From Bacteroidales bacterium (lineage in GTDB: Bacteria > Bacteroidota > Bacteroidia > Bacteroidales > UBA932): a stretch of DNA of 20,032 bases. The position numbers and the translations under genes were made by a program. Positions within the stretch are counted from its first letter, which is position 1. Each line of letters opens with the position of its first letter. The notes beneath the pieces are model-generated. The model saw only the letters and a program-made list of their open reading frames with translations. It did no database searches and was not told the origin of the DNA. The DNA lies in contig JAFVDC010000099.1 of NCBI GenBank assembly GCA_017478685.1, forward strand, positions 1 through 20,032, read 5' to 3'. This document shows positions 2,718 through 19,814 of the stretch, in pieces.

Positions 2718-4448
2718 TTAATTAGATATTAGCCAGTCTATGTATATGGGCATGTGGTCCGACCCTCCCCTCATTCCGTCATGGTTGTCCATAATAAGTT
2801 TCCAGTACTTCACCTTTGACTTTCCAACGGTGAAATAAATATGATCCAGCTGGTACCCGTCCTTAGCCACCTTTTCTGCGTAGCGGCGCATGGAGGAGTA
2901 CTCTGCGTTTTCTTTTTTATCGGCCTTTTTCTTGGAATCGGCAAGGAAGCCGCAGTTTTCTATCCAGGCAAGCGCAGGATTGTCGTCTGAACAGTTGAAG
3001 TCCCCGGTGAGGAAAGACGGATATTCACCGGCAATTTCCCGCACCTTGTTCACCAGAAGGCGGGAAGACAAAAGCATGGCCTCATTACTTATGAAATCGT
3101 AATGGGAATTGAAATTGAAGAATATCTTTCCTGTTTTCCTGTCACGGAATTTGGCCCAGATGCAGAGGCGGGACGTACTTCCGCCAAAGCCGCCCTTGGC
3201 TCCGGGGTTCTCAGTGTACCAGAATACGCCGTGGTCCAGTTTTTCCACCCTGGAGCGTTTCCAGAAGATGGAGTTGGAGAAATCCGGCTGCTCAAGGTTT
3301 GTGGAAGCGAAAACAGCGTCATATTCGTCTCCAAGCAGCCTCTCAAGGTCATGGAATTCCGGTTCAAAAGGCTCCTGCACGCCAAAGACATCAAATCCAT
3401 ACTCACGTACAACCCAATTGATGTAAGGAAGCCTGTCTTCCCAGGACGGACGGGAAGGGTCATCGTGCTTATATTCAATATTGAAAGTGGCAACCCTCAC
3501 AGTCTCTGACGCCCAGGATGCTTTGGCCGATGTCAGGGGCTTGAACCACTGGTCATAAGCCGCCCTGGCTTCCTTATTGCCGTCCACAATGGTCTTCACC
3601 TGGGAAGCCGTCTTGAAGGCGGTGATTTCGCTCATGCCTATTTCTGCCTCTCCGGTGACTGCAAGGCGTATTTCCGCGGCGTGGCCGTCCTCGGGGCTGT
3701 AAGACCATGCTATGTATATGCTTCCATTTCCGGGGGCGCAGACAACCGGATTGACAGCGTCCGTTCTGCTGTCCAGCATCATTCCGCCATACCAGGTGGC
3801 GCCTTCATCGTCAGAGAGATAAGCATAGATCTTGCGGGGAAGGTAGAAGAGGTTTTCGTCTATCTTGCCGTTTTTCACCAGCAGCCACTTTCCGCTTGGA
3901 AGCACTGTGATACAGGATGAAGACCACGGGTTAAGGAAGAAAGGCTCCGGTGAACTCCAGGTTTGCCCGAAGTCGGAGGACACGCTCCTGTATCTCCAGT
4001 TGTACCCGTGCGCCGATGTAAGAAGGACAATGCGTCCGTCCCTCAGCGGGATAAGCTCCGGGTAATTGTGTCCGTCCTTAACTTTCTCATCTATTGACAA
4101 TTGCCCACCAAAAGGCATCCAGCTTCTTCCTTTGTCCATTGACGCTTCAAGGCCAACAGTGCCCATTCCCTGCACAGGGCGCAGGTACATTCCGCTCCTG
4201 AGGCCGATTGCCGGAAGAGACAGCGGGCCTCCCACCGGCAGCAGTTCCGGGGCAGACCATGACGCACCGCCGTCCTGCGATGTTATGTACTCTGTATTGT
4301 CACCGTGGGAATAGGTCAGAGCCAGGGTACCGTTACGGCCGGAGAAGGACAACGGAGTGAGATTCCCGGTCAAGCCGGGAATGACGGAGGAGACGCCGGG
4401 AATGACGTTTATCAACAGGCAGAGGGATATGATAATCAGTCTTCTCAT
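2718..4448 (-). CDS. Secreted fusion of Asp-box (BNR/sialidase-like) propeller and EEP phosphodiesterase/nuclease domain
   Basis: The protein has 576 residues, with the start chosen at ATG 4448. Its first bases overlap the TGA of the preceding gene (ATGA), and it gives a signal peptide (MRRLIIISLCLLIN); a longer upstream reading would add a non-secretory leader. Residues about 40-250 carry four Asp boxes (SxDxGxxW-type, near 57, 103, 157 and 212), the mark of BNR/sialidase-like propellers. I see no FRIP motif or arginine triad, so sialidase activity is not supported. Residues about 317-575 are an endonuclease/exonuclease/phosphatase domain with its conserved set present: FNI (N323), QE (E359), NSHYD (H449), GDFN (D483, N485), LDH (D535, H536) and SDH (D564, H565). 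It is closest to the uncharacterized secreted EEP group common in Bacteroidales. Known EEP enzymes are metal-dependent and cleave phosphodiesters or phosphomonoesters; the substrate here is unknown. A short palindromic repeat is embedded in the coding sequence just after the signal peptide. Confidence 0.85.
   Translation of the reverse strand: MRRLIIISLCLLINVIPGVSSVIPGLTGNLTPLSFSGRNGTLALTYSHGDNTEYITSQDGGASWSAPELLPVGGPLSLPAIGLRSGMYLRPVQGMGTVGLEASMDKGRSWMPFGGQLSIDEKVKDGHNYPELIPLRDGRIVLLTSAHGYNWRYRSVSSDFGQTWSSPEPFFLNPWSSSCITVLPSGKWLLVKNGKIDENLFYLPRKIYAYLSDDEGATWYGGMMLDSRTDAVNPVVCAPGNGSIYIAWSYSPEDGHAAEIRLAVTGEAEIGMSEITAFKTASQVKTIVDGNKEARAAYDQWFKPLTSAKASWASETVRVATFNIEYKHDDPSRPSWEDRLPYINWVVREYGFDVFGVQEPFEPEFHDLERLLGDEYDAVFASTNLEQPDFSNSIFWKRSRVEKLDHGVFWYTENPGAKGGFGGSTSRLCIWAKFRDRKTGKIFFNFNSHYDFISNEAMLLSSRLLVNKVREIAGEYPSFLTGDFNCSDDNPALAWIENCGFLADSKKKADKKENAEYSSMRRYAEKVAKDGYQLDHIYFTVGKSKVKYWKLIMDNHDGMRGGSDHMPIYIDWLISN
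4361..4407 (-). repeat. REP-like palindromic repeat inside the coding sequence
   Basis: On the minus strand the 13-mer CGTCATTCCCGGC occurs at 4407-4395 and again at 4386-4374, exactly 21 bases (seven codons) later. The second copy continues into TTGACCGGGAATC, so ATTCCCGG and CCGGGAAT form an 8-bp inverted repeat with a 5-base loop (4362-4382). The segment is translated in frame as VIPGVSSVIPGLTGNL, right after the hydrophobic core of the signal peptide. The GTCATTCCCGG...CCGGGAAT pattern resembles short intergenic palindromes found in many bacteria. I saw no other copy in this window. Confidence 0.7.
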
Positions 4449-5863
4449 CTGTAACGCACAGCTATGGTTCCAAACTCCATATAGGTCCAGACGCTGCTGT
4501 TGGGGCGCAGGACTCCGTTGTCTGACCTGTACATGGCAAGGGTATAGGCATTCTTTTTCACGGGAGCTATGCGCACCCACACATCCTTGGCCCCAAACAG
4601 GGATGACGGAAGGACCACCTGATGCTCAGTAAGGCCCATACCACATTCGGTTGATGTATAATATGTAACACCGTCCTGCTCCCTCTGCCACCATGGCAGC
4701 GGCCTGCATGTGATGTCCGGGATATCCACACGGGCGTAGGCAACGTCGTCGGTTGACACCTCAACGCCCCAGTAAACAGGGCACATGCGGGTATTTCCGG
4801 AATAGTTGTCTCCGGCGGCAAATGAGAAGTCGAGGACAAGCCTGTCTCCGGATATACCAGACAGTGAGAACTTTACCACTACGGCATTACCGCAGTCTGA
4901 GCCCCAGTCCCACCAATGAGAGGCCAGGGTCCTCACCTGAAGTGAGCCGTATGGAACCTGTCCGCGGCTACCTACCTTATAATCCTTGTCCGGTTCCACA
5001 GCCGGATTGTCAATGTCACGGCCGCGGTATGTAGATGCCTCAAAATCAGTGTATAAGTACCCCTTTCCTTTGTCCGGGAGCACTTTTTGGCGCTTGATGT
5101 ATTCTTTCTCCCCCTCATCAGTCATCAGATATTTCTGATTGTCATTCCAGTTCCATTCGCAAACGGTGCTGAATGAGGACGGGCCGTCCCACTCAAAGTC
5201 AAAATCCCCTTCCTCCAGCGGACGGATCTGCGGCGCGTAAACCTTACCGTAACGGAGGATATCGGAACGCACATAAATGCCGCTGAGAGTTCCCTTGCCC
5301 TGCGGAACACCGTTTCCGCTGCGGCGCCAGGGGACTCTGGAGTTTATCATTGCATAAACCGGGGAGCCTTCTGAATCTGTAAGGAGAGTCTGCCATGAGT
5401 CCATCATGCCATTGCCGCCGAGAGCCTTGTTGTCTGAAGGACGGGCCGCGTATGACTCCAGTATATTGCAATAGGAACCGTATTTGAACACAAATTCGCA
5501 GTCGGGGATGCTCACCCAGGTGTAGAGGTCATCATCCGTCAGTTCACGGACACGCCTTACCCGTACGGGGACATCCTCCTTACGTCCCGGGACCACAGAC
5601 AGGACCGCGCCGTTGGGGATATCCCTTATAACCCGTCCACCGTCCTCTACCACTGCCTGTTCAATGTCTATGGTAACCCTGCTGTACCTCTCCAGTTTGC
5701 GGGCTTCAGGGTCCAGGTGCTGGAAGACCAGCTTCACGCCCCGCCACTTTCCGTCCTCACAAACCTCCATATACGCGGTCCTGTTGTTCTGCGTGGCACT
5801 TGCCGACCGATAATTGGTTTGCACGGAAAGGTCCAGATTGGGATTGGCCGGGGCCGATATCAC
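4445..5863 (-). CDS. DUF5689-type surface protein, third paralogue, start uncertain and N-terminus reduced
   Basis: The first usable canonical start is GTG 5863, giving 472 residues and TGA at 4445 that overlaps the next ATG. The first ~220 residues match the DUF5689-type region of the two upstream paralogues: LTDDDLYTWVSIPDCEFVFK, WRRSGNGVPQG...LSGI, and IRPLEEGDFD. The remainder is a beta-rich C-terminal domain ending FGTIAVRYR, like the others. There is no lipobox and no BACON-like region. Similarity to the paralogues starts upstream of the GTG: the in-frame codons before it read VIEGIVIS, matching IEGVVIS and LEGYIVS at the domain start of the paralogues. The frame is open back to 5986 without ATG, GTG or TTG. 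Either initiation is unusual (the upstream stretch LLKLLLISVIEGIVIS could pass for a secretion signal), or an ancestral N-terminus was deleted. Its role is probably substrate binding with its paralogues. Confidence 0.75.
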   Translation of the reverse strand: MISAPANPNLDLSVQTNYRSASATQNNRTAYMEVCEDGKWRGVKLVFQHLDPEARKLERYSRVTIDIEQAVVEDGGRVIRDIPNGAVLSVVPGRKEDVPVRVRRVRELTDDDLYTWVSIPDCEFVFKYGSYCNILESYAARPSDNKALGGNGMMDSWQTLLTDSEGSPVYAMINSRVPWRRSGNGVPQGKGTLSGIYVRSDILRYGKVYAPQIRPLEEGDFDFEWDGPSSFSTVCEWNWNDNQKYLMTDEGEKEYIKRQKVLPDKGKGYLYTDFEASTYRGRDIDNPAVEPDKDYKVGSRGQVPYGSLQVRTLASHWWDWGSDCGNAVVVKFSLSGISGDRLVLDFSFAAGDNYSGNTRMCPVYWGVEVSTDDVAYARVDIPDITCRPLPWWQREQDGVTYYTSTECGMGLTEHQVVLPSSLFGAKDVWVRIAPVKKNAYTLAMYRSDNGVLRPNSSVWTYMEFGTIAVRYR

Positions 5864-8076: not shown

Positions 8077-10524
8077 TTAATTGTAACGGAGAGTGAGCTC
8101 GCCAAAGCGGACCATGGTATAAAGCGGAGATGAATAATTCTTGATGGTGCCTCCCTCGGGGGTGAGGAATGCATCGTCAAGGGACTTGTTGGAGGCGGCC
8201 CGCACCCTTACCCAGACCTGGCTCTTGCCAAGCAGGCTGGCGGGAAGTTTGGTCACGTACTGATGCAGTCCTGGGACGGAGAAGCCGCCTCTCAGGGCAT
8301 CGGAGTTGGTGACGATGGGATGCATGGCATAGAGATGGTCAATGGCGGTAAACGTGCTGCCGTCGGTGGAATACTCAACCCGGTACTGGGTAGGGCCCTG
8401 GATGTCGTCGGTTGCCCCACGTGTAGATCCCTGTGCAGCGCTCCAGATGAGTACCAGGTTGCTGCCGGAAAGGCCTTCCGCGGAGAACTTGATGCAGAAC
8501 CAGGGGGCGTCATCCATGTTGCCAATGTCCTGACTGCCCCAGAAATAGCCACCGGTTTTCACAAAACCGAGAGCTCCGTTTTTCACCATTCCTTTGTAGT
8601 ATCCCGGTTTTACAGGGTCTGAAGTGTAATTGGTAAGATCATTGAAGCCGACGCTTGTCTGGATGGAGCCCACATTGCTGGTGATAGTTGCTGTGCCGTG
8701 GAGACCCGCCGCTATGGCATCTGCACCGTTTTTCTGCTCTTCGTCCCAGCCTTTGTACCAGGAGACAATCTCTTTGGAGAAGGCGTCGCCGGTGGGTTCT
8801 ATGTCGCTTTCTTCCAGGGGACGAAGCTGATAGTTGCCCAGCCATCCGTTCCTGGCCCAGCGGATAAGGTCCGTGTGTACCAGGATGCCGGTAACGCTGC
8901 AAGTTCCCTGCGGAACACCATTTCCGTAGCGGCGCCAGGTTACGCCATTGTTTACAAGTAGGTTGATTTCATTGCCATCGGCATCTGTCATACTGCACGG
9001 GGTGGTGTCGGACTTCTGGGGCGAACCTGACCAGCCTACATTGGTCTTCTCACCCTCAGGATTCAGTGCCGCGACGGGAGCAGCGTAGCCGTCGTGGCAG
9101 TTGGTGTAGGCCCCGTGCTTGAAACTCATCTCCAGCCCGGGAATCCTAACCAGAGTGTAAATATCTTTGTCTGTGAGCTCTGACAGCTTCTTTTCCTTAA
9201 CCTTGGGCGTTTCAGGGTCTCCCATTGACACGGCCGATTGTGTGAGGCCCTCTATGGTATAGCGGTCCGGATTGGTTTCCTTTCTCACAGTGACGCCGTT
9301 AAGATCAAGGGAGATACGGGAGCCGCGGTGAAGGGAGTTGTCGGCTCTGGAGGCAAAGACAAGGCGCAAGCCCTCCTCTGCGTCCGGAGTCTGGAGATAG
9401 GCGGTAACCCCGTTAAGGGAGGCGTCAAGTTCGGCCGGATTGAGGTTGGGTGCCGTTTCCATATTGGGAGAATCCATATCGGAAATAACCACGCCTTCTA
9501 TGGCGCCGTCGTCAGTGAACTCATACTCGCCGGAGGCTGCGAGGGCCTTTACATCGGCAAAAGAGAGGCGGGGCGCCTTCTTTTTCTGGGTAAGGGTATA
9601 GCTGAAAGGCGCTGTCGTGCCATTTGAATCAGTGAAACTCAGGTCAAGGTTGGCCACCCTGTCAGTGCTTGCCGTGTTCTCCTCAAGCGTGACGAGGAAG
9701 GCAGAACTACCATCGGCCGGAAGGGAAACCTGTGCCCACGACGGGGCTGTCTGAGCCGCCTTCTTTACCATGTTTCCGAGGTAAGGCAGGAGATTGGTGA
9801 TGACCGGGATAGTCACCACGGAGGATAGTGAGGACTGTCTGACGCCCAGCACTTCTTCCGGAAAGCTGAGGTATGGAGCCGCGTCTTTCTGCGCGAGCCT
9901 GAGGGTGGAGGTGTATTCAGTCCCTATGACATCGGCATAAGAAAGGGAGATGATTGCCACCCTTTCCGCACCGGTTTCATTTGCGGAGACGGTGAATTCA
10001 ACGGCCGATTGTTTCAGAGCCACACCGCTCACCCAATCTACCGCTGCGCCTTCGTCTGTACGTACATCAACCTGAACTTTGTCCATTTCAGAAGCGGGCA
10101 GGTTTGTGAATAAGGCAAGCTCCCCCGACGCGCCGTTCCGGGGAAGGTCAACTCCTTTGGTTGCGAAGCCGAAGCTGACCTCTCCAAGGCCCGATTTCTG
10201 GACCATGGCAACGCTCCTGACGTCACCGCCGGAGCTGATTTCTATTACGGCCCTGCGTGCGATGCCGACGTTGGCCGAATAATGGAAACGGACCTGTCCC
10301 ATGCCTGTACCGGAAGTGCCCTCGAGGCTGGCCCAGTCGGTGCCTTCCGTAAGTGTAGCCGTCCATGCTCCGTTGGCATAGACAATAACCGGAGTCATTC
10401 CCTCGGCCGCATCAAGTTCAACCTTATCGCTGGCAAGGGAGAGGTTCTGGTCAAAGCGGAACTCACTCTTGCAGGAAACAAGGAGAGCCAAAAGGGCCGA
10501 TATAAGAGTCAGATGCTTTCTCAT
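8077..10524 (-). CDS. BACON-like and DUF5689-type surface lipoprotein, first paralogue
   Basis: The protein has 815 residues, and its ATG overlaps the susD stop by one base (TAATG). The signal is MRKHLTLISALLALLVSC (Cys18). Residues about 30-113 are a good BACON-type repeat (DWASL, GIARRAVIEISSGG, VQKSG). Two further related sandwiches follow to about 320 (AERVAIISLSY...LAQKD; TDRVANLDLSF...LTQKK). Residues about 324-575 are DUF5689-like (AIEGVVISD, LTDKDIYTLVRIPGLEMSFK, WRRYGNGVPQG, VTGILV, QLRPLEESDIEP). The C-terminal ~240 residues are beta-rich and end FGELTLRYN. Its place immediately after susD is where surface glycan-binding proteins normally sit in PULs, so ligand binding at the cell surface is the best inference. 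No catalytic signature was seen. It is the longest of three tandem paralogues and has the most N-terminal sandwich repeats. Confidence 0.82.
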   Translation of the reverse strand: MRKHLTLISALLALLVSCKSEFRFDQNLSLASDKVELDAAEGMTPVIVYANGAWTATLTEGTDWASLEGTSGTGMGQVRFHYSANVGIARRAVIEISSGGDVRSVAMVQKSGLGEVSFGFATKGVDLPRNGASGELALFTNLPASEMDKVQVDVRTDEGAAVDWVSGVALKQSAVEFTVSANETGAERVAIISLSYADVIGTEYTSTLRLAQKDAAPYLSFPEEVLGVRQSSLSSVVTIPVITNLLPYLGNMVKKAAQTAPSWAQVSLPADGSSAFLVTLEENTASTDRVANLDLSFTDSNGTTAPFSYTLTQKKKAPRLSFADVKALAASGEYEFTDDGAIEGVVISDMDSPNMETAPNLNPAELDASLNGVTAYLQTPDAEEGLRLVFASRADNSLHRGSRISLDLNGVTVRKETNPDRYTIEGLTQSAVSMGDPETPKVKEKKLSELTDKDIYTLVRIPGLEMSFKHGAYTNCHDGYAAPVAALNPEGEKTNVGWSGSPQKSDTTPCSMTDADGNEINLLVNNGVTWRRYGNGVPQGTCSVTGILVHTDLIRWARNGWLGNYQLRPLEESDIEPTGDAFSKEIVSWYKGWDEEQKNGADAIAAGLHGTATITSNVGSIQTSVGFNDLTNYTSDPVKPGYYKGMVKNGALGFVKTGGYFWGSQDIGNMDDAPWFCIKFSAEGLSGSNLVLIWSAAQGSTRGATDDIQGPTQYRVEYSTDGSTFTAIDHLYAMHPIVTNSDALRGGFSVPGLHQYVTKLPASLLGKSQVWVRVRAASNKSLDDAFLTPEGGTIKNYSSPLYTMVRFGELTLRYN

Positions 10525-12026
10525 TATTCGTAGGCTTTATTGTCAAGGGCGTTCTCGGAAAGGGCCACTTCAGTGTCCGGGATGGGATAATACTCGTGGT
10601 ACGGCCTGATGTTTTCCTTCAGGACACCATAGTCTGAGAATTCGTAAGTCCTCTTGTACCAGATGCCCCAGCGGACAAGGTCAAACTTACGCTGAAACTC
10701 TCCCAGGAGCTCACGTCCGCGTTCCATCTGGATCTCGTCAAGTAAACGGTCCTTGGTGGTGAAAGTGTCTATGCCGGAGATTCCCGCACGGGTTTTTACC
10801 ATGTTAAGTTGCGTGAGGGCGTCGTCGGGGCGGTCAAGGGCGTTGTAAACCTCAGACAGCATAAGGACGGCGTCGGCATAGCGGAAAACAGGGTAATTGT
10901 TGCTGTCATAGGTGTTTATCATGTTGTAACACCAGAATTTGGGGCCCGGCCAGTTGCGCGAGAACCGGGTTCCGTTCCAGCTATATACCACTGACATGTT
11001 GCAGCGCCGGTCACGTCCTCCCTCTATAAAGAGGCCGTTTGCAAGATAGGCGTTGGGCCTCATTGGCTGCCAGGCAATACATTCGGAGCCGAGTTCAGGG
11101 ATTTCAGCGCCATTGAACTTGCAATTGCCGTTGTCATCCTTCTCAAGCGGGTATGGCATGAGCACAGCCCCATAGTTGGAATAGTACTGTAGGCCGCCGG
11201 GAGTGTAGGTGTGCTGGACTTCAAAAATGCTTTCCCTGGTGTTTTTGTTGCGGAAAGCAATGTCTTCAAGAGGATAATTGTCCTCAGTGAGGGCACCGTA
11301 CACTTCCTGAAGTGCTTCCAGGGACACACGAGCTTTGTCCCACCACGCGGCGGCGTTGGCCTCAGCATCCTTGCAGGCATTCCACATTGCCATTTTTGCA
11401 ATGAGCATGCGGGTGAAAGCCCATCCCGCCCTCTGGAGACCAAGGTCATAGGCCCGCTCCCTCGGTAGGTCTTCAACACACTGCTCAAGCTGCTCTATAA
11501 GCGTGCCGCGGGTTTCAATGGCGCTCATGCGGGGGAGGTGGCGCACCTTGTCCAGCGTGGGCCTGTCCCTTACATAATCTTCATAGTACGGGACATCCCC
11601 AAAGAAGCACGTGAGAATGTAGTACCAGTATGCGCGCATGGCCATGGCTTCCGCCTGCAGCGGCTTCAGGTCTTCAGGGTCAATTCCGGAGTTTTCCATG
11701 GCCCAGAGAGCATAGTTGGCGTTCCTTACTCCGGCGTATGCGTATTCCCAAAGGGTGATTCCAAAACGGGCGTTGGCCGGTGAGATGTCAAGTTGGGCAT
11801 CCTGGGTACCGGACTGGATGTAGAAAAGGTCTGTGCATCCTTCGGTTGCAATTGCAAAGCCAAGGGCATAGACAGTATTCAGCGGGCTGTAGGTTGCGGT
11901 GACACAGGCATCGGCCTGCTGGAGGGTCTCCACAAAATCAGGACTCACATAAAGATTGGCGGGCTCCTTGAGGGAACACGAAGCCGCGAATATGGCAAGT
12001 GCCAGTATGATTAATGTCCTTTTCAT
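10524..12026 (-). CDS. susD: SusD/RagB family nutrient-binding outer-membrane lipoprotein
   Basis: The protein has 500 residues, close to the usual SusD length, and starts 3 bases after the susC stop. The signal peptide MKRTLIILALAIFAASC ends in a lipobox (Cys17). The body shows the SusD pattern: an early helix with TATYSPLNTVYA, the AYAGVRNANYALW segment, the LQAEAMAMRAYWYYILTCFFGDVPY helix-loop, and a C-terminal RYADAVLMLSEVYNALDRPDDALTQLN TPR-like helix followed by an RGREL motif. SusD proteins sit as a lid on the SusC barrel and bind the incoming oligomer at the cell surface. The symbol denotes the family; the ligand of this copy is unknown. Confidence 0.95.
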   Translation of the reverse strand: MKRTLIILALAIFAASCSLKEPANLYVSPDFVETLQQADACVTATYSPLNTVYALGFAIATEGCTDLFYIQSGTQDAQLDISPANARFGITLWEYAYAGVRNANYALWAMENSGIDPEDLKPLQAEAMAMRAYWYYILTCFFGDVPYYEDYVRDRPTLDKVRHLPRMSAIETRGTLIEQLEQCVEDLPRERAYDLGLQRAGWAFTRMLIAKMAMWNACKDAEANAAAWWDKARVSLEALQEVYGALTEDNYPLEDIAFRNKNTRESIFEVQHTYTPGGLQYYSNYGAVLMPYPLEKDDNGNCKFNGAEIPELGSECIAWQPMRPNAYLANGLFIEGGRDRRCNMSVVYSWNGTRFSRNWPGPKFWCYNMINTYDSNNYPVFRYADAVLMLSEVYNALDRPDDALTQLNMVKTRAGISGIDTFTTKDRLLDEIQMERGRELLGEFQRKFDLVRWGIWYKRTYEFSDYGVLKENIRPYHEYYPIPDTEVALSENALDNKAYE

Positions 12027-12029
12027 GCC

Positions 12030-15000
12030 TTAATACCTTAACTGAACGGAGAAAACAATTTTGCGGGCCTTTGGATACGCGCCCACATCCATACGTCGTA
12101 TCTTGGAACCGGAAGCGTCTGAGGAGACATCCGGGTCAAAGCCGTTGTAGTACTTGAATAACAGAAGATTGTTCCCGGACAGGGTGAATACCACATCCTT
12201 GAGGAAAGTCTTCCTGGAGAGGTTGAGAGTGTAACTCAGGCTCAGGTCCTGGAGACGCAGGTAACTTGCGTCAAACACCATGAAATCACTTGGAACTGCC
12301 ACTTCATAGTTTCCGGCACGGGGGATGTCGGAGTCCGGGTTCCTCACGGGATGCCAGGAGTTGAGCATGAAGCGGTACTGGTTTGTATAGATGCCACCGG
12401 CCATGTAGAACATGGTGTAGTTGAAAATCTTGCCGCCAAGGCTGTAGGTCCAGTACATGTTGAGCTTGAATCCTTTGTAGCGGAAGGTGTTGTTGAGACC
12501 GCCGTAGATATACGGGTCTGCGTTTCCAAGGTAGCAGAGGTCACTCTGGTTAAGGACACCGTCATGGTTCACGTCCACATAGCGGGGAAGCCCCAGGGTG
12601 CGGGATGCCGTTTGCCCGGCATAAGCATGAGTGATGTTGTTGCGCTCAACTTCTTCCTGATTGTGCCAGACTCCGGCATAATGGAAGCCCCACAGGGCGT
12701 TGAGCGGGTATCCCTTCACATATCCCAGCATCATGTAAGGATTGTTGTTTGGGGATCTGTAAACGGATACAAAGTCCTCTGTACCAATGTCAAGGACCCT
12801 CTGGTCATTGTGCGAAACCGTAAGGGTTGTGCTCCAGGAGAAATTCTTTGTAACAATGTTCCTGGTGTCAAGAGTGAGCTCAAGTCCCTTGTTGGAGGTT
12901 ACGCCAAGGTTCTGGAGCACGGAGGAGTATCCGGTGCTCTTTGGAACTGACACGTTGAGAAGGAGGTCCCGCGTGCGGGAATCATAGGCCTCCGCTGTGA
13001 CGGAAATACGGTTGTTGAAGAATTTCCCCGTAAGGCCGATGTTATAAAGCGTGGTGGTTTCCCAGGTAAGGTCCGGGGAGGATATCCTTGACGGACGGTA
13101 AGAGGTTGCCCTTGAACCGTCAATGAGATAACCGGAGAATGAGGACATGGCGGCCTGGGACAGGAAATAGCCTATGGCGTCATTACCCGTCTGGCCCACG
13201 CTCACCCTTACAGAAAGCTCGTCCACATCTTTGGCGCCTGACATGAATTTTTCATTGTGGATATTCCATTTGGCCGATGCCGAAGGGAAAAAGCCCCATT
13301 TGCGGTTATCTGCAAAATTGGATGCGCCGTCTACACGGCCTGTAACGGTGAGATAATAGCGTTTGCGGTAGTTGTAATTGACCCTGGCAAGGACAGAGGC
13401 CGTTTCCTTGTATCTTGCGTAAGAATCGACGGTGTAGGTCTCTTTGTCAAGGACGGCGTTCATGTCGTTCCAGGCGATGTCGTCCACCAGGTACCCTGAC
13501 CCCTTTGCGCTTAAACGGCTGTAATCCAGAATGAAGCCGGTGAATCCGGCCACAGCGTCTATATGGTGCCCGCCCTTGAAATCTTTGTCTGCGGTGAGGC
13601 TGGTTTCAAAGGTGTGGTGGTACTCCGGAAGGGCCTCCTGATAGGCGTCACCGCCTTCACGCCCCTGTTTTGCAGGCAGGGAAGACTGGTAATAGTAGAA
13701 GCGCTGGCGGTCAAACTGAAGGAAGTTATACTGGAGTTTGAGCTTGAGCCACGGGGCAAGGGACGCTTCTCCCCAAACTGTCTGTGAGTTTGTAAAACGG
13801 CGGCAGAAATCGGTCTCGTTCTCTATCACGGAAAGCGGGGTGTTAATGACTCCGCCGTTGAAATAAAGCGGATTGTAATTGTCCCTGGGGCCAATTATGG
13901 GAGACAGGTACATGGCGGAATTCCACCAGCCTGTACCGCCTATCTTTGTAAGGGGATTCTCCGTGCGGCGGTATGTGAAACTCATCTTGTATCCCACCTT
14001 GAGCCATTTGAAAAGCTGGTGGTTTATGGAGAACGTGTCTGTAAAACGCTTCTCCCCCGTTTTCTTGATTATGCCCTCGTTGTCCGTATAGCTTGCAGAG
14101 AAGAAATACTTGGTTGCCGCGCTGCCACCGCTTGCGGAAAGGTAATAGCTCTGGTAGGGGGCAACCTGGGTTATCTGATCTATCCAGTCCGTGCCTTCCC
14201 CGTAGGAGAAAGGATCCGGAACGGACATTGAAGACACCGGGAGGGTAGAACTGTACTGGTTGCGGAAATAGGCGTAGTCGTTCCTGTAAATGGCAAACTC
14301 GGTGGCATTCATGATATCCGGCTTGAACGGGAGCTGGGAAATGCCGGCGGTAGCCTTGAAAGTTATGCTTGGCTTGGAGGAAGCCTGCGACGAAGACGCC
14401 TTAGTTGTAATAAGGATAACGCCGTTGGCACCCCTGGCGCCGTAGATTGCCGTAGAGGAGGCATCCTTGAGGACGGAGATATCTTCAATATCGGCCGGAT
14501 TTATGTCATTGAGGTCACTCACTGCGTCCATGATGCCGTCCACTACTATGAGGGGCTCGTTTGATGCCTCAATGGAACGCGTGCCGCGGATACGTATGGA
14601 CGTGGTTGCGCCGGGTTCTCCGGTGGTTGTCATGATATCGGCCCCGGCAACTTTGCCCTGAAGGGCCTGGTCAACTGATGTAAGGGGACTTTCACGGATA
14701 TCAGCCATCTTGATGTTGGACACGGACCCTGTAAGGTCTTCGTGCCTTACGGAGCCGTAACCGATGGCCACAGCTTCGTCCAGTGCCATTGTTACATCAG
14801 GCTCCATTACAACGTTGATGCGCGCCCTTCCGGAAACATTTTCCTCAACATCCTTCATTCCCAGATAGCGGAACTCCAGCACATCCGTGGTGGTGCAGTT
14901 TATCTTGTAGTAACCGTTGATATCGGCCATGGCCGTGGCCTTGGGAACGCCTCCCTGGCCCTGGACCAGGACCATGGCTCCGGCAAGGGGTTCGCCGCCG

Positions 15001-15116
15001 TCATCACTAATCCGGCCTTCAACCGAAAGCGCCTGCTGGGCATAAAGCCCGGTTGGCAGCAGGACCATCCAAATCACGGCAGCACAATGAGAGGCGAAGA
15101 TTTTCAGGTTGTTCAT
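12030..15116 (-). CDS. susC: SusC/RagA family TonB-linked outer-membrane transporter
   Basis: The protein has 1028 residues. A signal peptide (MNNLKIFASHCAAVIWMVLL...GLYAQ) is followed by a carboxypeptidase-regulatory-like sandwich (about 30-110: GRISDDGGEPLAGAMVLVQG, ADINGYYKI, LEFRYLGMK). Next is a TonB-box-like ALDEAVAIGYG, then the plug (about 120-250: VDQALQGKVAGADIMTTTGEP, IRIRGTRSI, PLIVVDGI, VLKDASSTAIYGARGANGVI). The rest is the 22-strand-type barrel, which ends KIVFSVQLRY, an aromatic-terminated strand as expected for outer-membrane insertion. It imports the substrate across the outer membrane using TonB energy together with the SusD encoded next. It is the first gene of the operon, preceded by a -7 box at 15148-15141 and a putative regulator site at 15205-15164. 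Confidence 0.96.
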   Translation of the reverse strand: MNNLKIFASHCAAVIWMVLLPTGLYAQQALSVEGRISDDGGEPLAGAMVLVQGQGGVPKATAMADINGYYKINCTTTDVLEFRYLGMKDVEENVSGRARINVVMEPDVTMALDEAVAIGYGSVRHEDLTGSVSNIKMADIRESPLTSVDQALQGKVAGADIMTTTGEPGATTSIRIRGTRSIEASNEPLIVVDGIMDAVSDLNDINPADIEDISVLKDASSTAIYGARGANGVILITTKASSSQASSKPSITFKATAGISQLPFKPDIMNATEFAIYRNDYAYFRNQYSSTLPVSSMSVPDPFSYGEGTDWIDQITQVAPYQSYYLSASGGSAATKYFFSASYTDNEGIIKKTGEKRFTDTFSINHQLFKWLKVGYKMSFTYRRTENPLTKIGGTGWWNSAMYLSPIIGPRDNYNPLYFNGGVINTPLSVIENETDFCRRFTNSQTVWGEASLAPWLKLKLQYNFLQFDRQRFYYYQSSLPAKQGREGGDAYQEALPEYHHTFETSLTADKDFKGGHHIDAVAGFTGFILDYSRLSAKGSGYLVDDIAWNDMNAVLDKETYTVDSYARYKETASVLARVNYNYRKRYYLTVTGRVDGASNFADNRKWGFFPSASAKWNIHNEKFMSGAKDVDELSVRVSVGQTGNDAIGYFLSQAAMSSFSGYLIDGSRATSYRPSRISSPDLTWETTTLYNIGLTGKFFNNRISVTAEAYDSRTRDLLLNVSVPKSTGYSSVLQNLGVTSNKGLELTLDTRNIVTKNFSWSTTLTVSHNDQRVLDIGTEDFVSVYRSPNNNPYMMLGYVKGYPLNALWGFHYAGVWHNQEEVERNNITHAYAGQTASRTLGLPRYVDVNHDGVLNQSDLCYLGNADPYIYGGLNNTFRYKGFKLNMYWTYSLGGKIFNYTMFYMAGGIYTNQYRFMLNSWHPVRNPDSDIPRAGNYEVAVPSDFMVFDASYLRLQDLSLSYTLNLSRKTFLKDVVFTLSGNNLLLFKYYNGFDPDVSSDASGSKIRRMDVGAYPKARKIVFSVQLRY

Positions 15117-15140: not shown

Positions 15141-15148
15141 CAAAGATA
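15141..15148 (-). promoter_or_regulatory. Bacteroidetes -7 box for susC operon
   Basis: On the minus strand the sequence TATCTTTG at 15148-15141 matches the Bacteroidetes -7 consensus TAnnTTTG. It lies about 25 bases upstream of the susC ATG, leaving a short leader of roughly 15-20 bases. No clean TTTG -33 element is present; a T-run of the putative regulator site (15177-15173) is about where it would fall. Confidence 0.6.
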
Positions 15149-15163
15149 ACCCCTATTGCCCGG

Positions 15164-15205
15164 AGGCGGGGGAAAAACAGTACCTAAAAAAGAAAAAATA
15201 GTCCC
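15164..15205 (-). promoter_or_regulatory. Putative HTCS operator upstream of susC (two 21-bp direct repeats)
   Basis: Minus-strand repeat 1 (15205-15185) begins GGGACTATTTTTTC and repeat 2 (15184-15164) begins GGTACTGTTTTTCC. The units match at 11 of their first 14 positions and their starts are exactly 21 bp apart. The same arrangement lies upstream of the regulator gene, including a shared 17-mer, AAAAAAGAAAAAATAGT, on the opposite strand. AraC-family regulators, including the output domains of HTCS proteins, bind direct repeats about 21 bp apart. Repeat 2 abuts the -33 position, which suits an activator. Repeat 1 starts within the stop codon of the upstream GH43-like gene. Confidence 0.6.
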
Positions 15206-16269
15206 TACTCCTCGGGGGTTGGAGCATAAAGAAGAGAATCCTCCCTGACGGGAAAACCCAGTACCGGAACACCGTCTTTTCCCCATTTAACTTCCTGCAT
15301 TCTGGGAGAACGGTTGTCCACTGCACGCATGTCAGGAAAACGGGATTTGCCGTTATAAAGAATGTACAACTGTTCACGGGTGCGGTAAAAACTAACGTGA
15401 CCGGGGCCGAGTACTCCCGTTCCCTCATTCTTGGAAAACACCGGTTCCGGGGATTTGTGCCAGGAGGAAGGTTCAAGGGGGTCTGCGCCTGCCGGAGCCA
15501 TGAGAAGTCCTTCACAGTAGTAACTTGTATAAGTCTCGCTTGCTGCGTAATACACTAGAAGACGCGTGCTGTCCCTTGAGTAGAGGAACTCAGGGCCTTC
15601 GTTTACAAGTGAGGGGGCGGGATAGGAAGTACCGTCCTCGTCTATCCATTGGCATTCCCATTCATATTGCGGGGTGGATATCACCCGCGGCGTTCCCTCA
15701 ATAGTCCAGGGATTTGTCATGGGGGCTATGCAAATATTCCAGACTGTAGCTTTCCCGGGGACCACGGAATCTGTCCCGGACCATAGGAGATAGCGTTTCC
15801 CGTCATGAGTGAAAGTAGTGGGGTGGATGTCCTTGACATTGCCTGTCTTAATCCAGCCCTTCATGGTGAAAGAGCCTTCCAAAGGGTCACGGGAAGGATT
15901 TTCCATAACATATATATGGCGGATGTCTCTTCCGGAGCCGTCGTCCGCCGAAAACATCACGTACCATTTTCCGTCTATGTGGTGAAGTTGCGGGGCCGAA
16001 ATGTGCGATGCACTGCCAGGAGAAAAAATCACGTGCTCTTTTGCGCCTGCAATATCTGAGATATGATCTGCCTTCCACACGGAGACACGGTCGTTCATGG
16101 ACTGGGTGTAGTAATAATGCCCGTCAAACCTGATAAGGCGCGGAGATGAGCCAGCAGGATAGATGGGATTGGTGAATGTCTCCCGCCCCACATCGGGAAC
16201 ATTTTTCTCGTAATTGTAGCAGGAAAGGACCAGAAGGGCCGACAAAAGTATGGGCACTATGCGTATCAC
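15205..16269 (-). CDS. GH43-family-like lipoprotein with substituted catalytic residues
   Basis: GTG 16269 is preferred as the start (354 residues). It gives a clean lipoprotein signal MIRIVPILLSALLVLSC (Cys17) and lies 4 bases after a -7-like box; an ATG at 16305 would add 12 residues before the signal. The protein follows GH43 five-bladed enzymes along its length: NPIYPAG at 34-40, APQLHHIDGKWYVMFSADDG at 92-111, GKRYLLWSG, NEGPEFL (E224, the position of the general acid), GPGHVSFY and SPRMQEVKW. In active relatives the first motif is GADPWV and the third is AIDGTV. Here they read GSSPRL (Ser42 for the base Asp) and DIHPTT (His149 for the pKa-modulating Asp). It is therefore probably not a working glycosidase and may be a surface glycan-binding protein. 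A motif shift relative to my remembered family alignment is the main uncertainty. It ends in TAG, 88 bases before susC. Confidence 0.75.
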   Translation of the reverse strand: MIRIVPILLSALLVLSCYNYEKNVPDVGRETFTNPIYPAGSSPRLIRFDGHYYYTQSMNDRVSVWKADHISDIAGAKEHVIFSPGSASHISAPQLHHIDGKWYVMFSADDGSGRDIRHIYVMENPSRDPLEGSFTMKGWIKTGNVKDIHPTTFTHDGKRYLLWSGTDSVVPGKATVWNICIAPMTNPWTIEGTPRVISTPQYEWECQWIDEDGTSYPAPSLVNEGPEFLYSRDSTRLLVYYAASETYTSYYCEGLLMAPAGADPLEPSSWHKSPEPVFSKNEGTGVLGPGHVSFYRTREQLYILYNGKSRFPDMRAVDNRSPRMQEVKWGKDGVPVLGFPVREDSLLYAPTPEE

Positions 16270-16273
16270 GGCG

Positions 16274-16281
16274 CTAATATA
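16274..16281 (-). promoter_or_regulatory. Candidate -7 box for the GH43-like gene
   Basis: Minus-strand TATATTAG (16281-16274) differs by one base from TAnnTTTG and ends 4 bases before GTG 16269. It mirrors the box in front of the divergent regulator gene, and it supports the GTG start and a leaderless or almost leaderless transcript. No clear -33 element was seen. Confidence 0.4.
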
Positions 16282-16310
16282 CAATTTTTCAGAAACGGCA
16301 GACACCGTGC

Positions 16311-16352
16311 GGTACTATTTTTTCTTTTTTCGGTCCCGGTTTTTTCTTTCTG
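16311..16352 (+). promoter_or_regulatory. Putative HTCS operator in the divergent intergenic region (two 21-bp direct repeats)
   Basis: Repeat 1 (16311-16331) begins GGTACTATTTTTTC and repeat 2 (16332-16352) begins GGTCCCGGTTTTTTC. Their starts are 21 bp apart and they match at 13 of 21 positions. Repeat 1 shares a 17-base identical stretch with repeat 1 upstream of susC. The site starts 68 bp before the regulator's -7 box, against 57 bp at susC, so the offset is 11 bp, about one helical turn. It also lies about 30 bp upstream of the GH43-like -7 box on the other strand, so one site could serve both directions. This would mean autoregulation if the HTCS binds here. Confidence 0.55.
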
Positions 16353-16378: not shown

Positions 16379-16386
16379 TATATTTG
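16379..16386 (+). promoter_or_regulatory. Bacteroidetes -7 box for the HTCS gene
   Basis: TATATTTG at 16379-16386 matches TAnnTTTG exactly and ends only 5 bases before ATG 16392. A transcript starting at the usual distance would have almost no leader and no Shine-Dalgarno sequence. No convincing -33 TTTG was seen. Confidence 0.6.
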
Positions 16387-16391
16387 CAGAC

Positions 16392-19300
16392 ATGAGGAAC
16401 ATTCTTCTCATAATCCTTCTTGCGTTGAACGCCTTCCCACAGAAGGCCACAGAGTATCTTGGGCAGAAGGAAGGGCTTTCAAGCAATCATGTCAACTGTG
16501 TAATCCAGGATGGCAGGGGATTTTTGTGGATAGGAACAGACTCCGGCCTGGACCTTTACGACGGAGACGCTGTGCAGTCTTTCCCACGTCCCGTCATTTC
16601 CCTTGCAGAGTGCGGAGGCTTCATCTGGGCCGGAACAAATGAGGGCGTTTTCTACTACAATCCCTCCGACGGCAGCCTCTCCCCTTTCAGGGTCACAACC
16701 AGATACGGGGTTAACATCATAGCCCCCGTAAACGCCCTTGCCGTTAACGGGAACAACCTGTGGGCGGGAACGGCTGGCCAGGGCATCTTCATTTACAATC
16801 TTTCAACTCAGGAACTTGTCCAGCACAGCATTCACACGCCATACGTGAAAAGGATAACACAGGACGCCGACGGACGTATCATTGTTGAATGCCTGGACGG
16901 CTCCACATATCTTTACAGCCACACAGGAGATTATATCCGGGATGTGAACATTCACCTGGCCAATAACGGAGCCTCTCTCCTTGACAGGGAGGGAACCCTC
17001 TGGATTCCTACTGAAGACATGGGGCTGATGATTATCCCAAGGAAAGATGCAGGAACCGTCTCCACTCCTCTCCCGGAAGGCAATTTACCGGGCAGAACCA
17101 CCCCCATTACAGAAGACGACGAAGGGACGCTATGGATGGGTATCGGCAACAGGCTTTATACTCTTTCTCCGGAAGGCCATGAAATCACGGTGGAAAAAGG
17201 GGCGAATATCTCCGGAAACATATCCCAGCTCCTGTATGTGCCGGGATATATATGGATAGGAACGGAAGAAGACGGGCTCTACAGATACGCCCCCGCGCAG
17301 AAAAGGGTGACGCATTACCCCTTAGCTACATCTGTAACCGCCATCCAACGTCTTTCCGGCGGAGATATCATTGTGGGAACAGACCTGGGGGTGTTCTCAT
17401 ACAGAACAGACACAGACAGTTTTGTGCCGGAACTCAACCGCAAAGACATAAGGATAATCCTCAACGGAGATGAATCCGAAAACCGGAATCTGGTTGAGTT
17501 TGAAGTGGTTGCAAAGAGTTCTGTGGCCGCCTTCGCTGAAGACATATCTTACCATCTGTATATGGCTACGTCCAACAGGGGACTGTTCAGGAAAGACCTT
17601 ATAGGTGGCAGGTGGGAGCATCTTGTAAACACACGCACAGGAGACAATTACCTGTCCGGAAACAAAGTGACCACCCTCTTCCCCGGAAAAGACGGCGGAA
17701 TATGGGCCGGCACAGCCGGGGACGGGCTCTGGTACCTTCCAAAGGACAGCCTGTCCTTCTCCCGACACGCTCTTCCGGACCGCCGCCTGGACGGAGCGGG
17801 GATAACCTCTCTTGCTACAGACGGCATCGGCCGCCTCTGGATGAGCACTACGCTGGGATTGTGGTGCTTTGACAACTCCCGCCACAGCATTACGCCGTAC
17901 AACATACGGTCCGGAAAGTTGCTGTATTCTAAAAGTGGGAAACTGTATGTGGGACAAAGTGATGCCATTGTCTCACTGATTCCCGGAGAGGCCGGGGCTG
18001 GAGCCGGTAATTCCAATGTGGTAATCCGCGAAATGCATGTTGGAGACAGCACGTTATTCATACCTCCTGGCGGGCGGGATATTGTCCTGAAGTATTCCCA
18101 GAACAGTTTTTCCATACGTCTTGCAGAACTCAGCTATACCGCTCCCTCCAGGAAAGTTTATTCCTGGCGGTTAAGGGGCCTTGAAAAGAACTGGACAAGG
18201 GGAAGCAGTCAGAACATGGCCACCTACACCAAAATCCCCTACGGTGATTACGTGTTCGAAGCCGGTGGCTGTGACGATATCCTGCATATTACCGTGAGCC
18301 CGCCATGGTGGCGCAGTACGGCGGCAAGCATCCTGTGGGTAATCCTTGGAATGGGAGCCCTGGCTGCGGCCATGATACTTTGGCAGAGGAGCATAAAACG
18401 GCGTTATTCAAAGCTCATGAAGGAAAGGGAAGAGGCTCGTGAGAAGGAGCTTTACAAGCAACGCTTACGCTTTTTTATCGGCCTGGTGCATGAGATAAGG
18501 ACTCCCCTCACGCTCATCCGTCTCCAGCACGACAAAGAAGAGCATGAACCCGACGACACCATCAGCCGGAACCTCAATTACATGCAGGACACCATAAACA
18601 GGATTCTGAGCTACGACAAAAACACCTCTGACGGCATAGACATGCTGGTGACAAGAGTAGATTTGAACGCCCTCGTGGAAGCCGTGGCATCAAACTTCCG
18701 GGAAAGCGCCATTTCAAAGGGACTCAGGCTCATGACGGCCCCGTATGCGGAAAGAGTATTTGTATATGCCGATGAAGACCAGATAACCAAGATACTGAAC
18801 AACCTTCTGTCAAACGCCCTGAAATACACACGGGACAGCATAGTGGTAGAGGTTGATGCCAGCGGGGAAAAAGCCTTTATACGGGTAGAGGACAACGGTC
18901 CGGGGGTCAAAGAGGAAGAACGTGAGAAGATCTTCGGCATGTTCTACACCCCGGCCGATGACAAGATAGCCGCATCCTCCGGTATGGGTGTAGGGCTGGC
19001 CTACGCTCGGCAGATTGCCAAAGCCCATAACGGGGACATTTCCGTGGAAAAATCGGCCATGGGGGGAGCATCTTTTGTTTTAAGCCTGCCTCTTATGAAG
19101 GAGGAGGAGAAACCAGAGGAACCCGCCTATTCAGGCACTCCGGCCGACACCGGCATCACAGTGCTCATTACAGAGGACAACACGGAACTTTTGAAAACGG
19201 TGCAGGAAGAACTTTCTTCCTATTACCGAATACTTACGGCAACGGACGGAGCCAAGGCCCTCACCATACTTGAAGAAGAGGATGTGGACATAGTTGTCAG

Positions 19301-19814
19301 CGATGTCATGATGCCCATAATGGACGGCCTTGAGCTGTGCCGGAAGATAAAAGGGAACATGGCCTACAGCCACATTCCCGTTATACTTCTCACAGCCAAA
19401 GTCTCTGTTACGGACAAGACGGAAGGCATGACAAGCGGTGCCGATGCATACGTGGAGAAGCCCTTCTCACTGCGGCAACTGCGCGGCCAGATAGACAACC
19501 TAATCCACCTGAGGGAAGCCTTCAGGAAAGCCGTTACAGAGAGCGGTGAACTGCCTAAAGAAGCTCATCAAGGCCATGATGCAGACTTTATGAACGCAAT
19601 AAACGCATCCATCGAGAAACAGATAGCGGAAGAGTCCTTCTCCATAGAGACCCTGGCCTATGACATGGCCATGTCCAGGACCAATTTCTTCCGGAAGTTC
19701 AAAGCCCTTACAGGAGGAACGCCCAACGACTACCTCAAGAATTACAGGCTCACAAGGGCGGCTGAACTCATACGCGAGGGTGCAAGGATCAACGAAGCTG
19801 CTGAGAAAGTGTGA
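16392..19814 (+). CDS. Hybrid two-component system regulator (HTCS), truncated by an in-frame TGA
   Basis: The protein has 1140 residues to the TGA. After a short signal or anchor (MRNILLIILLALNAFPQ), residues about 20-560 hold Reg_prop propeller repeats (GLSSNHVNCVIQDGRGFLWIGTDSGL, NNLWAGTAGQGIF, GGIWAGTAGDGLWYL). A Y_Y_Y sandwich (YSWRLRGLEKNW...YGDYVFEA) and a transmembrane helix at about 642-662 follow. In the cytoplasm come HisKA (VHEIRTPL, phospho-His 700), an ATPase domain (NNLLSNALKYT, DNGPGV, GMGVGLAYARQIAKAHNG), a receiver (ITEDN, phospho-Asp 971 in SDVMMP, LTAK) and an AraC-type output domain from about 1070. The first helix-turn-helix is complete (SIETLAYDMAMSRTNFFRKF). The frame stops at INEAAEKV, where relatives continue with Gly-Phe-Thr. 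HTCS proteins sense oligosaccharide in the periplasm and activate PUL transcription. All upstream catalytic residues are intact, so the break looks recent or artefactual. Confidence 0.93.
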   Translation: MRNILLIILLALNAFPQKATEYLGQKEGLSSNHVNCVIQDGRGFLWIGTDSGLDLYDGDAVQSFPRPVISLAECGGFIWAGTNEGVFYYNPSDGSLSPFRVTTRYGVNIIAPVNALAVNGNNLWAGTAGQGIFIYNLSTQELVQHSIHTPYVKRITQDADGRIIVECLDGSTYLYSHTGDYIRDVNIHLANNGASLLDREGTLWIPTEDMGLMIIPRKDAGTVSTPLPEGNLPGRTTPITEDDEGTLWMGIGNRLYTLSPEGHEITVEKGANISGNISQLLYVPGYIWIGTEEDGLYRYAPAQKRVTHYPLATSVTAIQRLSGGDIIVGTDLGVFSYRTDTDSFVPELNRKDIRIILNGDESENRNLVEFEVVAKSSVAAFAEDISYHLYMATSNRGLFRKDLIGGRWEHLVNTRTGDNYLSGNKVTTLFPGKDGGIWAGTAGDGLWYLPKDSLSFSRHALPDRRLDGAGITSLATDGIGRLWMSTTLGLWCFDNSRHSITPYNIRSGKLLYSKSGKLYVGQSDAIVSLIPGEAGAGAGNSNVVIREMHVGDSTLFIPPGGRDIVLKYSQNSFSIRLAELSYTAPSRKVYSWRLRGLEKNWTRGSSQNMATYTKIPYGDYVFEAGGCDDILHITVSPPWWRSTAASILWVILGMGALAAAMILWQRSIKRRYSKLMKEREEAREKELYKQRLRFFIGLVHEIRTPLTLIRLQHDKEEHEPDDTISRNLNYMQDTINRILSYDKNTSDGIDMLVTRVDLNALVEAVASNFRESAISKGLRLMTAPYAERVFVYADEDQITKILNNLLSNALKYTRDSIVVEVDASGEKAFIRVEDNGPGVKEEEREKIFGMFYTPADDKIAASSGMGVGLAYARQIAKAHNGDISVEKSAMGGASFVLSLPLMKEEEKPEEPAYSGTPADTGITVLITEDNTELLKTVQEELSSYYRILTATDGAKALTILEEEDVDIVVSDVMMPIMDGLELCRKIKGNMAYSHIPVILLTAKVSVTDKTEGMTSGADAYVEKPFSLRQLRGQIDNLIHLREAFRKAVTESGELPKEAHQGHDADFMNAINASIEKQIAEESFSIETLAYDMAMSRTNFFRKFKALTGGTPNDYLKNYRLTRAAELIREGARINEAAEKV

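What the first reader, a model, noticed from the sequence alone, without database searches (positions are those of the whole stretch)
15164..16352. Shared 21-bp-spaced direct-repeat operator upstream of susC and of the HTCS gene
Seen directly: both promoter regions carry two tandem 21-bp units with core GGKACTRTTTTTTC, in the same orientation relative to the gene they precede. A 17-base stretch is identical between the two sites (15186-15202 and the reverse complement of 16314-16330). Distances from site start to -7 box are 57 and 68 bp, differing by 11 bp or about one helical turn. Known: AraC-type output domains contact direct repeats separated by about two helical turns. Inference: this is the recognition site of the adjacent HTCS, making the regulon susC operon plus autoregulation, possibly with the divergent GH43-like gene.
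Basis: partly seen in the sequence, partly recalled or inferred. Interest (0 to 1): 0.78.

Follow-up and report, generated by a model that had tools for sequence, protein, structure and literature searches.

The report
Conserved two-part sugar-sensor DNA site
A gut bacterium's sugar-sensing gene and the sugar-uptake genes it probably controls carry the same two-part DNA landing site, kept at fixed positions in related species; it is a well-supported new example of a known kind of switch, not a new kind.

Summary
Two 21-bp units lie upstream of susC (15205->15164, minus strand) and of the HTCS gene (16311->16352, plus strand); 100 window shuffles gave no such pair. Correction: the quoted core fits only two of the four units exactly.

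Five relatives keep the HTCS / GH43-susC-susD gene order (HTCS 49-84% identical). The susC site is present in 6 of 6 loci, 57-58 bp before the -7 box. The HTCS site is present in 5 of 6, 67-68 bp before its box, about one helical turn further. In 400 genomes of the relatives' genus the 26-nt core with at most 2 mismatches occurs only at this locus (6 places). The HTH1 recognition segment is identical in the six loci with the site and differs in three distant relatives without it.

Best explanation: recognition sites of the adjacent HTCS, controlling susC and its own promoter, probably also the divergent GH43 gene. Ravcheev 2013 already predicted 21-bp direct repeats for Bacteroides HTCSs, so this is a new member of a known kind.

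Caveats: this contig's HTCS has an in-frame TGA (19812-19814) that removes the second HTH; relatives are intact. Binding is untested.

The parts
15185..15205 (-). susC operator, unit 1 (upstream unit)
   Evidence: sequence; conserved in 6 of 6 loci
15164..15184 (-). susC operator, unit 2 (promoter-proximal unit)
   Evidence: sequence; 36-37 bp before the -7 box in 6 of 6 loci
15141..15148 (-). -7 box TATCTTTG of the susC promoter
   Evidence: fits TAnnTTTG; no TTTG in the 30 nt before it
12030..15116 (-). susC (TonB-dependent receptor)
   Evidence: Pfam Plug and CarbopepD_reg_2
10524..12026 (-). susD
   Evidence: Pfam SusD_RagB
16311..16331 (+). HTCS-promoter operator, unit 1
   Evidence: sequence; conserved in 5 of 6 loci
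16332..16352 (+). HTCS-promoter operator, unit 2 (degenerate)
   Evidence: sequence; 46-47 bp before the -7 box in 5 loci
16379..16386 (+). -7 box TATATTTG of the HTCS promoter, 5 nt before the ATG
16392..19814 (+). HTCS gene, the proposed regulator; in-frame TGA at 19812-19814 cuts off the second HTH
   Evidence: Pfam Reg_prop, Y_Y_Y, HisKA, HATPase_c, Response_reg, HTH_18 (partial, 1-53 of 80); relatives run on
16274..16281 (-). candidate -7-like box TATATTAG of the divergent GH43 gene
   Evidence: TAnnTT[AC]G lies 3-6 nt before the GH43 start in 6 of 6 loci
15205..16269 (-). GH43 gene from the likely GTG start (ORF reaches 16305); lipoprotein-like N-terminus by eye
   Evidence: Pfam Glyco_hydro_43; start inferred

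Best explanation
The two sites are operators for the AraC-type output domain of the adjacent HTCS. Each 21-bp unit would be read by one output domain, HTH1 on the GGNAC box and HTH2 on the T-rich part about one turn on; two subunits would sit on the same DNA face, two turns apart. When the periplasmic sensor binds its oligosaccharide, the phosphorylated HTCS would occupy the susC site next to the -7 box and recruit RNA polymerase to a promoter without a -33 element. The same protein would act on its own promoter from a site about one helical turn further upstream, most likely as positive autoregulation, and probably from there on the divergent GH43 gene. Shown here: the repeats, their conservation, constant spacing, locus specificity and co-occurrence with one HTH1 sequence. 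Inferred: binding, activation, the HTH-to-box assignment and the GH43 effect.
For: Conserved pairs with constant spacing in 6 of 6 (susC) and 5 of 6 (HTCS) loci. Offset 21 stands out in non-T matches, 38 against at most 19 at offsets 8-41. With at most 2 mismatches the core occurs only at this locus in 400 genus genomes. HTH1 segment identical in the 6 loci with the site and different in the 3 without. No TTTG at the -33 position in the 12 promoters looked at. The 21-bp architecture is known for Bacteroides HTCSs and is the top offset in 15 other -7-anchored HTCS-linked susC promoters.
Against: No binding or expression data. The HTCS site is missing in L135. The second units are weakly conserved. 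The HTCS of this contig lacks HTH2. Anchors for L134, L136 and L162 were chosen by eye with 21 bp in mind. HTH1 identity and site presence both follow relatedness, so the co-occurrence is not independent evidence.
Confidence: 0.85

Rival explanations
1. The shared sequence is a generic T-rich upstream promoter element with no dedicated regulator.
For: The best conserved stretch is T-rich.
Against: With at most 2 mismatches the core is found only at this locus in 400 genomes, and the non-T boxes repeat at 21 bp.
Confidence: 0.04
2. The site belongs to another AraC-type regulator or HTCS encoded elsewhere in the genome.
For: HTCSs are numerous in this phylum, and regulation in trans was not tested here.
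Against: The site goes with the adjacent HTCS in six loci and only with its HTH1 sequence; the HTCS gene itself carries the site.
Confidence: 0.08
3. The site in the HTCS promoter serves repression (negative autoregulation) or only the divergent GH43 gene.
For: The site also lies at a fixed 28-30 bp from the GH43 box; the HTCS site sits 11 bp further from its box than the susC site.
Against: It is oriented towards the HTCS gene, about one helical turn further out than the susC site rather than over the -7 box, and at constant distance from the HTCS box.
Confidence: 0.25
4. The susC-side copy is a transcription terminator of GH43.
For: The site begins in the GH43 stop codon and is T-rich.
Against: By eye there is no strong hairpin before it (neither the terminator scan nor folding was run), and the same sequence precedes the HTCS gene, where no gene ends.
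Confidence: 0.02

Closest known systems
Predicted HTCS operators of Bacteroides (Ravcheev et al. 2013, PMC3878776; abstract and passages read)
   Same: Direct repeat of two sites, on average 21 bp apart, upstream of susC-type operons next to an HTCS gene; proposed dimer on one DNA face.
   Different: Another lineage (uncultured rumen/gut Bacteroidales) and another sequence; here also in the HTCS gene's own promoter, at a second fixed distance. Whether their regulons include HTCS genes could not be checked (supplements not open).
AraC-family proteins with two HTHs, such as MarA (1bl0) and the solved HTCS chain 12aw_A
   Same: The output domain of the intact ortholog L001 matches both by sequence (E 2.4e-4 and 2.4e-17). 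Two HTHs reading two major-groove segments one turn apart, and AraC half-sites about 21 bp apart, are recalled.
   Different: MarA binds as a monomer to one site (recalled); here the site is a tandem pair.

Membership tests
HTCS operator (21-bp direct repeat) | Two direct-repeat units about 21 bp apart | tested here: met
HTCS operator (21-bp direct repeat) | Lies before susC or other locus genes next to an HTCS gene | tested here: met
HTCS operator (21-bp direct repeat) | Conserved in orthologous loci | tested here: met
   susC site 6 of 6, HTCS site 5 of 6
HTCS operator (21-bp direct repeat) | Bound by the cognate HTCS and needed for induction | not testable with these tools
   needs EMSA, footprint or reporter
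Hybrid two-component system protein (16392-19814) | Periplasmic Reg_prop / Y_Y_Y sensor, histidine kinase and receiver in one protein | tested here: met
   (HisKA below its curated cut-off: 22 against 26.9 bits)
Hybrid two-component system protein (16392-19814) | Complete AraC-type output domain with both HTHs | tested here: not met
   in this contig the second HTH is cut off; complete in the five orthologous loci and in 17 of 17 close homologs

The most novel reading that the evidence does not exclude
One HTCS works as a three-promoter switch of fixed geometry: at susC unit 2 lies 36 bp before the -7 box, at its own promoter 47 bp (about one turn further), and the divergent GH43 promoter is read from that same site, the boxes being 96-98 bp apart in 5 of 5 loci with the site. 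Both divergent mRNAs are leaderless. HTH1 sets the GG-box specificity while HTH2 and the T-tract stay nearly fixed, so operator specificity could be predicted from HTH1.
Probability: 0.3. Interest if true: 0.5.

Novelty: new member of a known kind. Interest (0 to 1): 0.36.

Why it matters
Here an HTCS site, its regulator and its promoter geometry are tied together in an uncultured rumen/gut lineage, by sequence alone. If positive autoregulation is real, the locus should respond to its glycan in a sharper, switch-like way. The 21-bp repeat placed about 36 bp before TAnnTTTG is also a simple aid for finding HTCS operators in other genomes, though only part of the promoters tested fit it.

Tried and rejected
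Own-genome search was not possible. An HTCS search in 249 family genomes gave 14 with a match, 13 of them only 31-35% identical, and one in 249 'relatives' of G400 gave no new ortholog; the four useful loci beyond L001 came from the SusC search in 300 genus genomes (20 of the listed matches fetched) and the HTCS search in 400 (8 with a match). Of the 20 fetched SusC loci, 3 have the HTCS and GH43 beside susC. SusC homologs below about 60% identity (L139-L153, 15 loci) mostly seem to sit inside operons and gave no test of the site. L137 and L138 keep a T-rich tract and a GGTA or GATA box but do not match the core; they were not counted as conserved. Without a -7 anchor, 21 bp is the top offset only narrowly: 11.8 against 11.0 in 52 susC regions and 11.2 against 10.7 in 74 HTCS regions, and several HTCS hits are the divergent susC site read backwards. 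In the -7-anchored test (15 of 52 regions) six near-identical loci were collapsed to one; 21 bp is then among the top three of 30 offsets in 7 of 10 loci (first in 3) and not in L051, L066, L030. The idea that HTCS genes are leaderless in general failed: of 18 boxes found before 17 of 74 other HTCS genes, 14 lie 22 nt or more before the ATG (starts estimated). In one search the GH43 query was in the wrong frame, corrected. Structure prediction, Rfam search, RNA folding and the promoter/terminator scan were not run.

Full report
WHAT IS THERE. The window holds a polysaccharide-utilisation-type locus. On the plus strand lies an HTCS gene (16392-19814) with Reg_prop, Y_Y_Y, HisKA (weak), HATPase, receiver and AraC-type HTH matches. 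On the minus strand lie a GH43 gene, susC, susD and further genes with BACON, DUF5689, BNR and GLUG matches. Between GH43 and susC, and between GH43 and the HTCS gene, lies the same tandem site: two units 21 bp apart, oriented towards susC and towards the HTCS gene respectively. A two-box pattern with up to 2 mismatches finds only these two places in the window and none in 100 dinucleotide shuffles. The 17-base identity is exact. Only the first unit of each site fits the quoted core exactly; the second unit at the HTCS gene is degenerate.

CONSERVATION. SusC and HTCS searches in the relatives' genus gave four more loci with the same gene order: L134 (HTCS 69%), L135 (51%), L136 (49%) and L162 (51%). 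In all six loci, window included, the susC promoter carries the pair, 57, 57, 57, 58, 57 and 57 bp before the -7 box (order window, L001, L134, L135, L136, L162). Five of six carry the pair before the HTCS gene, at 68, 68, 68, 67 and 68 bp. In L135 the HTCS/GH43 intergenic stretch is short and the pair is absent. Non-T matches between the head of unit 1 and downstream sequence, summed over the 11 sites, are 38 at offset 21 and at most 19 at any other offset from 8 to 41. Bias to note: the anchors were set by eye, and for L134, L136 and L162 with the 21-bp rule in mind. Compared with the window, the first 28 nt of the site are 64-93% identical in the four diverged loci, while the 14 nt after the pair are 21-50% identical; T-richness inflates the first figure.

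SPECIFICITY. In the 2.1-Mb genome of L001 a loose two-box pattern has two perfect matches, both at this locus, among 7 matches with up to 2 mismatches; the reversed control has 17. A stricter pattern with up to 1 mismatch hits 3 of 300 genus genomes at 4 places: the two sites of L001 perfectly, and one single-mismatch place each in G504 and G259; the control column shows 1 by eye. The 26-nt core GGNACKNTTTTTTCYTTTTTNGGTMC with up to 3 mismatches gives, in 8 genomes (about 17.5 Mb), 6 matches in 5 genomes, all at this locus, control 0. It misses 3 of the 9 sites known in those genomes (L134 susC, L136 HTCS, L162 HTCS), which are more diverged. In 400 genus genomes, those 8 included, it gives 26 places in 24 genomes: the 6 places with 0-2 mismatches are all this locus, the other 20 all have 3 mismatches and are background, since the reversed control gives 39 by my hand count of the table. 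The pattern was made from these sites, so the information lies in the absence of other good hits.

REGULATOR. The HTH1 recognition segment MSRTNFFRKFKALTG is identical in the six loci that carry the site. It differs in the three more distant HTCS-GH43 loci L163, L164 and L165 (MSKTNFYRKFHGITG, MSKSNFFKKFKAVAG, MSKTNFYRKFHAITG), whose genomes have no match to the core at 3 mismatches or fewer. HTH2 is nearly unchanged in all that have it. Among the 18 closest proteins, window included, 14 have exactly this HTH1 segment. This suggests, but does not show, that HTH1 reads the GG box and HTH2 the T-rich part; both traits also follow kinship. The protein has the SHIP residues (seen in the translation) of the S/CHIP-DK motif that PMC11253607 (passages) links to inhibition of DNA binding before phosphorylation; the D and K positions were not checked.

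PROMOTER GEOMETRY. In the 30 nt before the -7 box no TTTG is found in 11 of 12 promoters; the twelfth (HTCS promoter of L136) has one 6 nt before the box, not at -33. This fits activator dependence. The HTCS ATG lies 5-6 nt after its box in 6 of 6 loci, and the likely GH43 start 3-6 nt after a TAnnTT[AC]G box in 6 of 6. Both are thus predicted leaderless or nearly so; leaders under 10 nt are about 3.7% of those mapped in B. thetaiotaomicron (PMC7366714, passages). The GH43 box lies 28-30 bp from unit 1 and 96-98 bp from the HTCS box in the 5 loci with the HTCS site, so the divergent gene may well be controlled from the same site.

GENERALITY. Beside other HTCSs across Bacteroidota and neighbours, 58 SusC-like ORFs were found in the 80 loci. 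52 upstream regions were kept (L001, fragments and short flanks dropped) and 15 have a TAnnTTTG box. The best direct-repeat offset is 21 bp (mean score 13.2, next 7.8); 11 of 15 score 10 or more, and of these 9 have the best downstream window 35-43 bp before the box. After collapsing six near-identical loci, 10 remain: 12.1 against 8.0, with 21 bp among the top three offsets in 7 and not in 3. Without the -7 anchor the signal is weak.

CAVEAT ON THIS CONTIG. The window's HTCS has an in-frame TGA at 19812-19814 that removes the second HTH. The 17 closest homologs (50-89% identical) continue through it. The frame past the stop is still conserved: 16 of 26 codons differ from L001, 12 of them silently, against 389 silent of 567 differing codons before it. 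So the stop is recent or an assembly error. The operator reading rests on the orthologs and does not need this copy to work.

NOVELTY. Ravcheev et al. 2013 predicted motifs for 16 HTCSs as direct repeats averaging 21 bp (PMC3878776, abstract and passages). The present site is a new member of that kind in another lineage. Four full-text searches on HTCS operators and autoregulation led to no paper that, in the passages I read, describes a conserved operator in an HTCS gene's own promoter. Most of the listed papers were seen only as listings, and subscription papers and supplements were not searched, so this is not a claim of absence from print.

Noticed in passing
window 19812-19814 (+): In-frame TGA in the HTCS gene cuts off the second HTH; close homologs are intact and the frame past the stop is still conserved, so it is recent or an assembly error.
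   Followed up: partly
window 16267-16281 (-) and 16379-16394 (+): Both divergent genes, GH43 and HTCS, have a -7-type box only 3-6 nt before the start codon in 6 of 6 loci, so both mRNAs are predicted leaderless; not general among other HTCSs.
   Followed up: partly
L135 (G474), about 8913-9030: The HTCS-promoter site is lost and the two divergent boxes lie almost back to back, while the susC site is kept.
   Followed up: partly
L025, L032, L042, L048, L055, L072 (susC upstream): Six marine-type loci share another 21-bp direct repeat with a CTTCAAAT / CCTCAAAT core before susC, likely one further HTCS operator family.
   Followed up: no
L163, L164, L165: More distant relatives keep the divergent HTCS-GH43 pair; in G379 and G497 (L163, L164) susC lies far away on the same contig (about 18-20 kb), L165 is a short contig. 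Sensor about 23% identical, HTH1 changed.
   Followed up: partly
window 2718-4580 (-): One ORF matches both a BNR (sialidase-type) repeat family and Exo_endo_phos, a pairing that looks unusual to me for a glycan locus.
   Followed up: no
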